Positions 2,850 to 6,624 of a DNA stretch of 21,332 bases are shown here, in pieces. A program made the translations under genes and the position numbers. Under the pieces are notes generated by a model, which worked only from the letters and a program-made list of their open reading frames with translations, ran no database searches and was not told the origin of the DNA. Location: positions 1 to 21,332 of the IMG/VR virus record IMGVR_UViG_3300006802_000708. One strand, 5' to 3'. How positions within the stretch are numbered: position 1 is the stretch's first letter; every line of letters begins with the position of its first letter. This DNA comes from a virus.

Positions 2850-2863
2850 GATTCCCTCTCTTC

Positions 2864-2912
2864 GGTTCCCGTTCCCCGTACCTCACTTCGTTCGGTACGG
2901 GTAACGGTAACC
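2864..2912 (-). promoter_or_regulatory. Long intercistronic stem-loop with 11-nt loop
   Basis: Two 19-base arms pair around an 11-base loop. Read on the transcribed (-) strand, the stem has three helical blocks (GGTT/AACC, CCGTT/AACGG, CCCGTACC/GGTACGGG) separated by two single A-G mismatches, and the loop is GAACGAAGTGA. No run of T follows, so it is not a classical Rho-independent terminator. The form (long stem with isolated mismatches between genes) resembles RNase III processing or mRNA-stabilising hairpins in podovirus transcripts. The same loop recurs at 5228-5238. Confidence 0.7.
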
Positions 2913-2913
2913 G

Positions 2914-2994
2914 TCAGCCAAACAGCAACCGGTAAGCTATAAGTACTACCGCAAACGGTAATAGAAAGTAAACGATTGATGCTATAGCATACAA
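2914..2994 (-). CDS. 26-residue putative membrane micro-protein (TTG start)
   Basis: TTG at 2994 is preceded by AGGA with a 6-base gap (GCAGGAAGCGCATTG). The product is almost entirely apolar (YAIASIVYFLLPFAVVLI, then AYRLLFG), a plausible single transmembrane helix with a positive residue at its C-terminal end. It overlaps the end of the preceding ORF (stop at 2982-2984) in another frame and ends two bases before the hairpin at 2864-2912. No family is recognised. A toxin-like, holin-like or host-membrane-targeting role would be guesswork; a non-ATG start lowers confidence. Confidence 0.4.
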   Translation of the reverse strand: MYAIASIVYFLLPFAVVLIAYRLLFG

Positions 2995-3140
2995 TGCGCT
3001 TCCTGCCAGGAGCCTAACTCTCTTGCAGACCCCAGCACGTCGCTGACATAGCGCTCAATTGCCTCTATAGACCCCATAGGCTCTAAATCACCCTTGATAA
3101 CATCGAAACGCACGATAACACTAACAATGTTATCGTGCAA
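2982..3140 (-). CDS. Small hypothetical protein, start uncertain
   Basis: An open frame of 52 codons runs from TTG 3140 to TAG 2982-2984. Alternative starts in the same frame are GTG 3113 (43 residues) and ATG 3077 (31 residues, weak AAGGGTG/GAG upstream). The readout is protein-like: an apolar strand (NIVSVIVRFDVI), then KGDLEPMGSIEAIERYVSD, then a helical LGSARELGSWQEA tail. The TTG and GTG candidates lie in the perfect 11-bp dyad at 3110-3138, so a folded message would hide them. A TATAAT-like -10 lies just upstream (3168-3163). No family recognised. Confidence 0.4.
   Translation of the reverse strand: MHDNIVSVIVRFDVIKGDLEPMGSIEAIERYVSDVLGSARELGSWQEAHCML
3110..3138. repeat. Perfect 11-bp inverted repeat (operator or leader hairpin)
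   Basis: Arms GCACGATAACA (3110-3120) and TGTTATCGTGC (3128-3138) are perfectly complementary around a 7-base centre. The element lies about 25-58 bases downstream of a leftward -10-like TATAAT and covers the possible non-ATG starts of the next ORF. No T-run follows on either strand directly. It could be a repressor operator or an RNA hairpin controlling translation. Confidence 0.65.
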
Positions 3141-4273: not shown

Positions 4274-4390
4274 CTATAAAGACAGAACCAGAACCATGAA
4301 CACCCACAGTACAAAGCAAGTAACTGTACATTGAGCAACTACTACTACCCAATCTTTCCAAGTCATCTCTTCTAGTATTTCTTTAAGCAT
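4274..4390 (-). CDS. 38-residue putative single-pass membrane protein
   Basis: ATG 4390 overlaps the end of the upstream gene by 8 bases (ATGCTTAA), with AAGGGA about nine bases upstream. The N-terminus is charged and amphipathic (MLKEILEEMTWKDW), followed by about 24 apolar residues (VVVVAQCTVTCFVLWVFMVL to the end), so a single membrane helix is likely. The reading frame is clean and the chain of overlaps (upstream gene, this ORF, then the 53-residue gene) argues that it is real. Function unknown; it could act at the host membrane. Confidence 0.55.
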   Translation of the reverse strand: MLKEILEEMTWKDWVVVVAQCTVTCFVLWVFMVLVLSL

Positions 4391-4649
4391 CTTCTGTTTC
4401 CCTTATAACTTTAAGTAATGAACGCTCAGCACCAAGAGTTATATCAGCATCAGACTCTAGGTATCTGACCGCAGCCTTGTGAATCTCCTCTCTATCCTCA
4501 GTAATAGGACGGATACCAGCATCACGCTTGAGTATCTTAACCTTCCTGATTCCAGTGTGAGTCAGGACTATAAACCAGTCATACTTCCGGCCCTCCTCTA
4601 CCCTCAAAGCCAGCTTGAACTGGTCGTTATACCAGATTGTACCTAACAT
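4383..4649 (-). CDS. Hypothetical protein (88 aa)
   Basis: I prefer ATG 4649, which has GGAGAGT seven bases upstream, the RBS form used by its neighbours. ATG 4670 with AAGGGTAG would give 95 residues. The product starts MLGTIWYNDQFKLALRV and shows an alternating apolar/polar pattern, then a basic stretch (IRKVKILKRDAG) and an acidic helical C-terminus. It looks like a small soluble alpha/beta protein. No family recognised. It is the first gene after the AT-rich hairpin at 4704-4745 and may head its own transcript. Confidence 0.7.
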   Translation of the reverse strand: MLGTIWYNDQFKLALRVEEGRKYDWFIVLTHTGIRKVKILKRDAGIRPITEDREEIHKAAVRYLESDADITLGAERSLLKVIRETEDA

Positions 4650-4703
4650 AGCAAACTCTCCGTTGCTCATCTACCCTTAGACAATTATTGATTTGAAAAA
4701 TTC

Positions 4704-4745
4704 AAAAAAAAAATATATATATACTCAATGAATATATATATATTT
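4704..4745 (-). terminator. AT-only hairpin followed by T-run
   Basis: On the - strand, a 13-bp perfect stem (AAATATATATATA with TATATATATATTT) closes a 9-base loop and runs straight into seven further T. It lies between the coiled-coil gene (stop at 4797) and the next leftward gene. The stem has no G-C pair, so termination would be weak. The same AT-rich block could also serve as promoter or melting region. Confidence 0.4.
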
Positions 4746-4796
4746 GATTTATATAAAGAAAGAGAGCAGTTTTACTACATGCTCAGGTATTCTTTG

Positions 4797-5144
4797 TTAG
4801 CTAGGCAGGCCGTTAATAGCAGCCTTCACCGTGCCTTCCGGTGATACAGTGGCAAGCAGCGTGCTATTCTTCGGAGCGCGGCGGCTCTCTGCCATGTACC
4901 AGACAGACTTGCCATCCACATACACCAGCTTGGCATTAGCGCCACGATTCTTAGCCAGTCGCTTGGCTTTCTTCAGCTGAGTCTTGTACTTAATATCAAA
5001 GTCCTTATCAACATTAGCCTCAGTCTCAGCCTCAGTCTCCACTGCCGGAGCTTTCTGCATCTCAATAATAGCATTCATACATGCTTCCATGCCAGCAGTA
5101 AGAGTAGCGATCTGAGCTTCGAGTGCTTTAATTTCTTTAGACAT
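4797..5144 (-). CDS. Coiled-coil hypothetical protein (115 aa)
   Basis: ATG 5144 has AAGGA about nine bases upstream. Residues 1-32 (MSKEIKALEAQIATLTAGME and on) have heptad-like spacing of apolar residues and probably form a coiled coil. Residues 33-48 are acidic and low in complexity (AVETEAETEANVDKDFD). The next part is basic (KKAKRLAKNRGANAK), followed by a possible small beta domain (LVYVDGKSVWYMAE). This layout suits a small oligomeric nucleic-acid-binding protein, but that is inference. It follows the helix-turn-helix gene and the hairpin at 5200-5266. No family recognised. Confidence 0.75.
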   Translation of the reverse strand: MSKEIKALEAQIATLTAGMEACMNAIIEMQKAPAVETEAETEANVDKDFDIKYKTQLKKAKRLAKNRGANAKLVYVDGKSVWYMAESRRAPKNSTLLATVSPEGTVKAAINGLPS

Positions 5145-5199: not shown

Positions 5200-5266
5200 C
5201 TAACTCCCTTCTCCGTATCCGCCCTCTTCACTTCGTTCAGAGGGCGTATACGGGAAGGAGAGTAAG
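5200..5266 (-). promoter_or_regulatory. Long imperfect stem-loop with the shared 11-nt loop
   Basis: The inner stem CGCCCTCT/AGAGGGCG (5220-5227 and 5239-5246) encloses loop TCACTTCGTTC on the + strand, identical to the loop at 2864-2912. Outward, CGTAT/ATACG and further blocks extend pairing to about 28 positions with isolated mismatches. It lies between the stop of the helix-turn-helix gene (5270) and the coiled-coil gene. No T-run follows on the transcribed strand. The stem sequence is unrelated to the other hairpin, so structure plus loop appear to be what is kept. An RNase III-type processing or mRNA stability site is the simplest reading. Confidence 0.7.
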
Positions 5267-5269
5267 GAC

Positions 5270-5593
5270 TCAGCAAACTGTAGCCAGAACATCCCACGCA
5301 GCCCTTTCAGGGCTCAGGTCAAACTCAGGCTCTTCGATGGGCAGCGGGAAGCCTTCTTCGTCAAATTCTAATACCGTGCGTTTAATGCGCAGGGTATCAG
5401 CGATTTCGGTGCTGCTATAGCCGTAGCCCTCCAGAACACGCACGATATCCCTTTGGGATATTCCCGCGCTTTCTGCGTCAGCTACCAACAAGGCAGCTTC
5501 CTCAATCACCGCCTGATGCATATAACACGCCAGTTCCATAGAATCATTGAACATAGAACCATAACCCATAAGATTATCAATTTCAGCTTTCAT
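5270..5593 (-). CDS. Helix-turn-helix protein, first gene of the leftward block
   Basis: A 107-residue protein. ATG 5593 has AAAGGA seven bases upstream; the longer in-frame TTG start at 5617 has no RBS. Residues about 45-75 (ISQRDIVRVLEGYGYSSTEI, then ADTLRIKRTVLE) fit a helix-turn-helix like that of sigma-70 region 4 or small phage regulators: the GYS-S-EIA-L pattern is typical. The N-terminal half is helical, and the C-terminal 30 residues are acidic (FDEEGFPLPIEEPEFD). As the gene nearest the divergent region it may regulate the leftward or rightward promoters. The tandem hairpin element at 5630-5772 would form its leader if transcription starts upstream of it. DNA binding is inferred from the motif alone. 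Confidence 0.75.
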   Translation of the reverse strand: MKAEIDNLMGYGSMFNDSMELACYMHQAVIEEAALLVADAESAGISQRDIVRVLEGYGYSSTEIADTLRIKRTVLEFDEEGFPLPIEEPEFDLSPERAAWDVLATVC

Positions 5594-5629
5594 GGTATTT
5601 CCTTTTGTCGGTTTCAAATTAGGGCTAAG

Positions 5630-5772
5630 GGAATCATCCAGCCCCCTCCTTAAAGAGGGGGGCTGGTGATTTCCTAATGCTCCAGCCAGTTTGGCCTAGC
5701 TAAGTATATCATCCAGCCCTCACTTCGTGAGGGGCTGGTGATATACGTAAGGCTCCAGCCGGTCGGCTTTTG
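5630..5772. repeat. Tandem ~75-bp structured element, two copies
   Basis: Two copies about 73-75 bp apart share ATCATCCAGCCC, its complement GGGCTGGTGAT and a downstream GCTCCAGCC(A/G)GT. Copy 1 forms a hairpin at 5630-5674 and copy 2 at 5704-5746. The outer stem bases differ but still pair (GGAA..TTCC versus GTAT..ATAC), which is compensatory change. A bulged T is kept in the left arm of both. A second small stem follows each (GCCA/TGGC in copy 1; AGCC/GGCT then TTTT in copy 2). The downstream CCAGCC could also pair with the GGCTGG of the hairpin's right arm, allowing two alternative folds. Confidence 0.75.
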
Positions 5773-5956
5773 CGTCACGCGCGAAACAGCCTACCGCGCC
5801 GCACGCACGGTTATTATCGCGCCCGTAGCGCGGCATATAGCGCTAGGTTATAAGGGGTTGATAACTGGAACTGGCATAAGCTTATTCGATTTGATTATAT
5901 GGGAGAATAATTTGTTATTTTTCAGCCGGTTATGGCTCATATTTGGGGCGTTCTAG
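5738..5956 (+). CDS. Doubtful ORF in GC-rich patch (72 aa)
   Basis: GTG 5738 begins inside the second hairpin, with no clear RBS, and the frame runs to TAG at 5954-5956. The first part (VTRETAYRAARTVIIAPVAR) is coded by a GC-rich block unlike its neighbours, and the second part is apolar (ISLFDLIIWENNLLFFSRLW). The Arg/Ala-rich stretch recalls short ORFs I associate with prophage or satellite immunity regions of gammaproteobacteria, but I cannot verify this. It may be a host-derived fragment or simply an open frame across structured DNA. Confidence 0.25.
   Translation: MIYVRLQPVGFCVTRETAYRAARTVIIAPVARHIALGYKGLITGTGISLFDLIIWENNLLFFSRLWLIFGAF
5894..5899 (-). promoter_or_regulatory. Candidate leftward -10 box TATAAT
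   Basis: The - strand reads CCCATATAATCAAATCG. The hexamer is perfect, but no good -35 lies at 16-18 bases. If used, transcription would start near 5887 and give the helix-turn-helix gene a leader of nearly 300 bases containing both tandem hairpins. Confidence 0.3.
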
Positions 5957-6083
5957 AGCTGAGAATGCGATTCACTCTCATTCGCATCTCCACTAGGCGG
6001 ACAGGGGGGACGGGGTAGCGCTATGCGCGTACAAATGCACTCTAATAAAATCTAACAGAAATGTCAGTAATCGGAGATTACGT

Positions 6084-6106
6084 GTTATCCACAGGAAGTG
6101 GATAAC
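6084..6106. promoter_or_regulatory. Inverted pair of DnaA-box-like sequences
   Basis: TTATCCACA (6085-6093) matches the consensus DnaA box exactly. Five bases on, GTGGATAAC (6098-6106) is its inverted partner; on the - strand it reads TTATCCACT, one mismatch. The two form a perfect 9-bp dyad GTTATCCAC-AGGAA-GTGGATAAC. The AT-rich dyads and TA tract about 60-160 bases to the right would suit a melting region. This suggests a host DnaA-dependent origin or a DnaA-responsive promoter. Confidence 0.55.
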
Positions 6107-6168
6107 GGGAATGGGGACTACTACAGAACGTAGTGGATGGGGGCGGGCAGCAAGAGTCTTGGTTAATA

Positions 6169-6262
6169 ATAGTCTTAGCTCGTTAGTAAACTCACTAAGA
6201 CTATATACTTCTAAGATATTCAAGTATTCATATCTAAGAAGTATTATATATATATATATATA
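6169..6262. repeat. Two AT-rich dyads and a TA tract (candidate unwinding region)
   Basis: ATAGTCTTAG (6169-6178) pairs perfectly with CTAAGACTAT (6195-6204). ATACTTCTAAGATAT (6205-6219) pairs with ATATCTAAGAAGTAT (6230-6244) with one central mismatch. CTAAGA or its complement therefore occurs four times in about 70 bases. Nine TA dinucleotides follow at 6245-6262. The arrangement suits initiator-protein sites next to an easily melted tract. Confidence 0.55.
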
Positions 6263-6309
6263 AATACAAGGGGTACAATAATATTGACGAAATATATTCA
6301 ATTTCTTAC

Positions 6310-6344
6310 GTCAATTGTGTCAATTGTTACAATATTGTTACAAT
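6310..6344. repeat. Short direct repeats (iteron-like)
   Basis: GTCAATTGT occurs twice in direct tandem (6310-6318, 6319-6327). TTGTTACAAT follows twice with an 11-base period (6324-6333, 6335-6344). The 11-base period places the second pair on one face of the helix, as for cooperative protein sites. Confidence 0.6.
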
Positions 6345-6346
6345 TC

Positions 6347-6403
6347 GCCGCCTTGCGGCAAAGACGAGCACACCGTAGGTGGATCGCGCCAAGGAAATGG
6401 CGC
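6347..6403. other. Cluster of three GC-rich hairpins
   Basis: GCCGC-CTT-GCGGC (6347-6359), CACC-GTA-GGTG (6371-6381) and GCGCCA-AGGAAA-TGGCGC (6386-6403) follow one another inside an otherwise AT-rich region, and are followed by a C-run at 6415-6420. They could be a structured RNA or part of the origin. No known RNA family recognised. Confidence 0.45.
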
Positions 6404-6539
6404 TGAGGCTGAAACCCCCCTACCAACTTTAATTACGCCTATAATCAACCACTTAGCAAAAATATGCAAAATAATTCAATTTTCTTCGTAAGATTTCGTT
6501 TTATTTTCGTCTATATTACTATACAAGACAAAAAAGTTA

Positions 6540-6588
6540 CACCTTTGGGTGAACGAGGGGATACCCTCTTCCGGCGCTCACTCGCCGG
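6540..6588 (+). promoter_or_regulatory. Three hairpins in the leader of the first rightward gene
   Basis: CACC-TTTG-GGTG (6540-6551), GAGGG-GATA-CCCTC (6555-6568) and CCGGCG-CTCACT-CGCCGG (6571-6588) lie in series just before the GAGGAG RBS of the gene at 6625. They would fold in the 5' leader of the rightward transcript. No T-run follows them, so leader structure or processing is more likely than termination. Confidence 0.5.
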
Positions 6589-6624
6589 ATAGCCCACTTA
6601 ATCAACTCAGTGAGGAGAATAGAT

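What the first reader, a model, noticed from the sequence alone, without database searches (positions are those of the whole stretch)
5630..5772. Tandem structured RNA-like element with compensatory changes and two alternative folds
Two copies about 75 bp apart keep CCAGCCC/GGGCTGG stems, a bulged T and a downstream GCTCCAGCC(A/G)GT, while their outer stem bases differ yet still pair (GGAA/TTCC versus GTAT/ATAC). Each is followed by a small second stem, and in copy 2 the small stem runs into TTTT. The downstream CCAGCC can compete for the GGCTGG arm, as in attenuators or antisense/immunity RNAs. It lies in the divergent control region next to a regulator gene. Pairing and repeats are seen directly; the switch function is inferred.
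Basis: partly seen in the sequence, partly recalled or inferred. Interest (0 to 1): 0.72.

Follow-up and report, generated by a model that had tools for sequence, protein, structure and literature searches.

The report
Phage early-message RNA hairpins
Two near-identical RNA hairpins sit in the leader of a phage's early genes, most likely as cutting or stabilising marks on the early messenger RNA, as in phage T7, rather than as a genetic switch.

Summary
The hairpins are real: two tandem 75-bp units at 5628-5675 and 5704-5746, with compensatory differences in the outer stem. The window is a fragment of a Zobellviridae/Cobavirinae-like podophage; the hairpins lie in the 5' leader of its leftward early operon, so mRNA sense is minus. 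Two more, H3 (5200-5266) and H4 (2863-2913), start directly after stop codons of early genes. These are the window's four strongest hairpins. Relatives carry hairpins of unrelated sequence at the same spots, where pairing favours the sense strand and is kept by compensatory changes. A covariance model of T7's five early RNase III sites finds early-gene gaps of Zobellviridae phage ICP2 (E down to 2e-7) but not the window. Best reading: T7-like early-mRNA processing or stabilising stem-loops of unrelated sequence; cleavage is untested. The switch idea fails: the competing fold is 23-26 kcal/mol weaker, no U-tract terminator is called, and the TTTT lies on the strand opposite to the operon's mRNA.

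The parts
5628..5675 (-). H1, copy 1: leader stem-loop, 20-21 bp
   Evidence: Folds at -30.3 (minus) and -34.5 (+) kcal/mol; third strongest palindrome class of the window
5704..5746 (-). H2, copy 2: leader stem-loop, 19 bp, cap ACGAAGTGA
   Evidence: Folds at -28.4 kcal/mol on both strands; tandem copy of H1 at 75 bp
5200..5266 (-). H3: stem-loop of about 26 bp starting 3 nt after the stop codon of gene 5270-5593(-)
   Evidence: Folds at -39.9 kcal/mol on minus; gap z -4.63
2863..2913 (-). H4: stem-loop of 18 bp starting directly after the stop codon of small ORF 2914-2994(-)
   Evidence: Folds at -32.3 kcal/mol on minus; gap z -5.44
5720..5728 (-). Cap motif ACGAAGTGA in H2 (also 5228-5236 in H3 and 2883-2891 in H4)
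   Evidence: 3 matches in the window, 0.17 expected, 0 of 100 shuffles reach 3
5270..5593 (-). First gene of the left operon, 107 aa (ATG start), function unknown; preceded by AAAGGAAA about 8 nt upstream
   Evidence: no family or homologue
4797..5144 (-). Second gene of the left operon, 115 aa, function unknown
2914..2994 (-). Small hydrophobic ORF, 26 aa, directly upstream of H4
5594..6609 (.). Noncoding divergent junction; in ICBM1/ICBM2 the direct terminal repeats lie at the equivalent junction

Best explanation
H1 and H2, together with H3 and H4, are stem-loops in the leader and between the genes of a polycistronic early phage mRNA transcribed leftward (minus strand). They most likely act as T7's early RNase III sites do: the stem of about 20 bp is cut co-transcriptionally by the host's double-strand-specific RNase III, and the remaining stems protect the ends, so that early genes get their own stable messages. 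H1/H2 are a tandem duplication of the leader site. Shown: the hairpins, their positions, compensatory change between copies, and hairpins of unrelated sequence at equivalent spots in relatives that pair better on the sense strand. Inferred: transcription of the leader, RNase III as the enzyme, and the effect on mRNA stability or translation.
For: H1-H4 are the four strongest palindromes of the window and all are noncoding, though noncoding DNA is 10% of it. H3 and H4 start within 3 nt of early stop codons. Contig L006 has its two strongest sense hairpins in the first gene's leader and directly after its stop, sense z -5.8/-5.7 versus antisense -1.8/-2.3. ICBM1-3, CRP-5 and PQ867845 have hairpins at or just after early stop codons and P12053L one just before its first gene. 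Structured early gaps are stronger in sense in 18 of 22 cases, late gaps in 4 of 12. Six pairs of the sio-/veravirus hairpin show compensatory change. T7's RNase III sites have the same placement and sense bias, and a model built from them finds four early gaps of the Zobellviridae phage ICP2 at stop codons, E 2e-7 to 0.029. No U-tract follows H1-H4, which speaks against intrinsic terminators.
Against: The window's own hairpins do not show the sense bias of the relatives: H1 pairs better on + by about 4 kcal/mol, with G-T pairs there; H2 is equal; H3 and H4 favour minus by 2-4 kcal/mol. The T7 model does not match the window or any cobavirus. No transcript or cleavage data. P12053L and SIO1 show few or no such hairpins in the gaps tested. 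The leftward promoter is only a consensus-like guess.
Confidence: 0.6

Rival explanations
1. Passive mRNA stabilisers or translation insulators: the stems shield 5' and 3' ends from RNase E and exonucleases, or stop ribosomes coupling across genes, without being RNase III substrates.
For: Same position and strand evidence as for the best explanation; stems lack U-tracts.
Against: The T7 model's matches at the same spots in a family member (ICP2) point to RNase III-type sites at least there.
Confidence: 0.22
2. DNA-level elements: cruciform-forming inverted repeats that serve as operator, replication or packaging signals of the terminal-repeat region.
For: They lie in the divergent junction, where relatives have terminal repeats; palindromes are strong on both strands; H1 pairs better on +.
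Against: H3 and H4 lie far from the junction, behind stop codons; in relatives the pairing favours one RNA strand through G-U pairs, which a DNA palindrome would not need.
Confidence: 0.08
3. Attenuator or antisense/immunity RNA on the + strand, switching between the long hairpin and a GGCTGG:CCAGCC alternative.
For: The repeats and the extra CCAGCC are present; + folding is slightly stronger for H1.
Against: The alternative fold is 23-26 kcal/mol weaker; no terminator or + promoter called nearby; the adjoining operon is read on the other strand.
Confidence: 0.05
4. Dispersed repeat hairpins (REP/MITE-like) that inserted between genes and have no role for the phage.
For: H2-H4 share a 9-nt cap; a 19-mer around the H4 cap occurs in 11 other viral contigs, some as short hairpins.
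Against: Stems are unrelated in sequence among H1/H2, H3 and H4; several of the 19-mer matches show no extended stem; equivalent positions in relatives carry hairpins of other sequence.
Confidence: 0.05

Closest known systems
Early RNase III processing sites of phage T7 (R0.3, R0.5, R1, R1.1, R1.3)
   Same: One stem-loop in the leader of the first early gene and others between early genes, mostly just after stop codons, no U-tract, sense-strand bias in T7; T7's early transcript is cut at five sites (PMC4858673)
   Different: No match to a covariance model of the five T7 sites; longer, GC-richer stems; two tandem leader copies; no sense bias in the window's own hairpins; cleavage unknown
T7-type sites in early gaps of Vibrio phage ICP2 (Zobellviridae), found here
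   Same: Same virus family and same placement at early stop codons
   Different: ICP2 sites match the T7 model, the window's do not
Sio-/veravirus early hairpins (core GGTGCAYCT, in ICBM1-3, P12053L, CRP-5), found here
   Same: Same subfamily-level relatives, leader and post-stop positions, conserved core with compensated outer stem
   Different: Unrelated core sequence; clear sense-strand G-U bias, which the window lacks
Transcription attenuators and antisense/immunity RNAs
   Same: Hairpin in an operon leader with a repeated arm sequence
   Different: No comparable alternative fold, no terminator, no + strand promoter called

Membership tests
T7-type early RNase III site (function) | Stem of about two helical turns of double-stranded RNA | tested here: met
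   H1 20-21, H2 19, H3 26-27, H4 18 pairs
T7-type early RNase III site (function) | Placed in the leader or between early genes, upstream of the next ribosome-binding site | tested here: met
T7-type early RNase III site (function) | Pairing favoured on the transcribed strand | tested here: inconclusive
   Relatives and T7 yes; window mixed: H1 favours +, H2 equal, H3/H4 favour minus
T7-type early RNase III site (function) | Cleavage by RNase III | not testable with these tools
   Needs transcripts and enzyme
T7 RNase III site sequence family | Match to a covariance model of the five T7 sites | tested here: not met
   No window match up to E 5; ICP2 matches
Transcription attenuator | Two mutually exclusive folds of comparable stability | tested here: not met
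   -12.6/-13.2 versus -38.4/-36.0 kcal/mol
Transcription attenuator | Terminator hairpin with U-tract on the transcribed strand | tested here: not met
   None called in 5600-5800
Antisense/immunity RNA | Own promoter on the + strand upstream of the hairpins | tested here: inconclusive
   No consensus call nearby; weak 9/12 match at 5358; other promoter types not covered
Any Rfam family | Score at the gathering threshold | tested here: not met
   No match; only sub-threshold matches

The most novel reading that the evidence does not exclude
Zobellviridae early operons carry a fast-changing class of leader and stop-codon hairpins, conserved in place and strand but not in sequence, that is read by a phage- or lineage-specific RNA-binding protein or nuclease rather than by ordinary RNase III; the tandem H1/H2 pair and the shared ACGAAGUGA cap would be its recognition signals.
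Probability: 0.12. Interest if true: 0.55.

Novelty: new member of a known kind. Interest (0 to 1): 0.33.

Why it matters
It suggests that T7-style early-message processing extends to Zobellviridae, a phage family in which such elements are not marked in the records read here, and that the position of such hairpins can persist while their sequence is fully replaced. It gives simple sites to test in cultivated relatives.

Tried and rejected
Core-pattern scans of viral contigs and GTDB genomes: 1 and 13 stretches, without the flanking outer stem or second copy, judged chance; stricter minus-strand pattern: 0. Relatives in IMG/VR of the two genes next to the hairpins and of CobS: none. Covariance model of the two copies over 0.95 Mb of window and relatives: only the window at E < 0.3. 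DNA similarity to the phage collection: none. Strict inverted-repeat search without G-U pairs found almost nothing in relatives; this was misleading, because their hairpins use G-U pairs on the sense strand. Shared cap as a specific signal: the 19-mer recurs in other viral contigs, so it is treated as a common stable cap. Terminator and switch readings rejected on energy and strand. Rfam: no family.

Full report
What the window is. It is a 21,332-base virus record. The right part (from about 6610, + strand) encodes tail, terminase, portal and capsid proteins; the left part (up to 5593, minus strand) encodes a CobS-like ATPase and small proteins. The terminase is 60-63% identical to that of Cobavirinae phages (CRP-4, CRP-5, P12053L, ICBM1-3, SIO1). 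In ICBM1 and ICBM2 the equivalent divergent junction carries the short direct terminal repeats, and the arm with replication genes runs away from it.

The observation. Two 75-bp units lie in the noncoding stretch in front of the left operon's first gene. H1 is 5628-5675 and H2 is 5704-5746. Their arms differ by two double compensatory changes and one one-sided change. The 201-nt block folds with z -7.3 (+) and -6.5 (-), with 0 of 200 shuffles as good. Ranked by the energy of the weaker strand, the four strongest palindromes of the window are H3, H1, H2 and H4, all noncoding, although noncoding DNA is only 10% of the window. H3 begins 3 nt after the stop of the first gene and H4 directly after the stop of a 26-aa ORF. 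H2, H3 and H4 share the cap ACGAAGTGA on the minus strand, found nowhere else in the window.

Strand. The genes on this side are read leftward, so mRNA sense is minus. On either strand the competing fold is far weaker (free -35 to -38, with the 5' arm blocked -11 to -13 kcal/mol), and no intrinsic terminator is called there. The best sigma-70-like match for leftward transcription is 10/12 at 6323, which would place H1/H2 in the leader; this is inference.

Relatives. No sequence homologue of H1/H2 was found. What recurs is the position. Contig L006 (terminase 64%) shares the phrog_624 gene in the same orientation. Its two strongest sense-strand hairpins are in the first gene's leader and directly after that gene's stop; both are far stronger in sense than in antisense. 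ICBM1, ICBM2, ICBM3, CRP-5 and PQ867845 have hairpins beginning at or just after early stop codons, and P12053L has the siovirus core just before its first gene. In the sio-/veravirus set, 6 of 24 pairs show compensatory change against 0-1 when partners are slid (only 5 distinct rows, so supportive rather than conclusive). Over nine annotated relatives, structured early gaps pair better in sense in 18 of 22 cases, structured late gaps in 4 of 12. Limits of this test: gaps were chosen by length, one gene start in PQ867845 was moved by hand past its hairpin, the late arms of some genomes were sampled only in part, and the values were copied.

T7 comparison. T7's early RNase III sites occupy the same kind of positions and show the same sense bias. 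I placed the five sites from the folds of the annotated T7 gaps and my own knowledge of the site names; the record itself does not annotate them. A covariance model built from them matched early gaps of ICP2, a Zobellviridae phage: 29029 (E 2e-7), 32020 (1.5e-6), 28590 (0.0034) and 32799 (0.029), each within 7 nt of an early stop codon. It did not match the window or the cobaviruses. E-values from the short calibration are rough. T7's early transcript is cut at five sites by RNase III (PMC4858673).

Conclusion. The hairpins are best explained as early-mRNA processing or stabilising stem-loops that work like T7's RNase III sites. They are not members of the T7 sequence family, and cleavage is untested. 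The main weakness is that the window's own hairpins lack the clear sense-strand bias of the relatives' (H1 pairs better on +). The cobavirus paper PMC6775973 mentions the central bidirectional terminator and terminal repeats, and does not use the words hairpin, stem-loop or promoter.

Noticed in passing
L066 (Vibrio phage ICP2) 28590, 29029, 32020, 32799: Early gaps of ICP2 match a covariance model of T7's early RNase III sites (E 2e-7 to 0.029), each at an early stop codon; the annotated start of gene 38 (32020) overlaps one of them and may be placed too early.
   Followed up: partly
L069 (phage GX1-k141_326647) 32678-32800, 42201-42341, 35158-35329: Very strong stem-loops between early genes (sense z -6.9, -6.2, -5.2), the last with no antisense structure.
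   Followed up: no
6085-6105: TTATCCACA, a perfect E. coli-type DnaA box, facing an 8/9 copy (AGTGGATAA), next to AT-rich DNA: a possible replication origin.
   Followed up: no
6310-6345: Repeated CAATTGT/TTACAAT palindromes (CAATTGTGTCAATTGTTACAATATTGTTACAATT), operator-like, in the divergent junction.
   Followed up: no
4705-4752: AT-only inverted repeat that on the minus strand runs into a run of ten T, between genes 4797-5144(-) and 4383-4660(-).
   Followed up: no
3110-3138: Perfect hairpin GCACGATAACA/TGTTATCGTGC near the start of small ORF 2982-3140(-), downstream of a TATAAT-like box.
   Followed up: no
L070, L078, L080 (and window 2879-2897): The 19-mer TACCGAACGAAGTGAGGTA, the tip of H4, occurs in 11 other viral contigs, in several as the tip of a longer stem.
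   Followed up: partly
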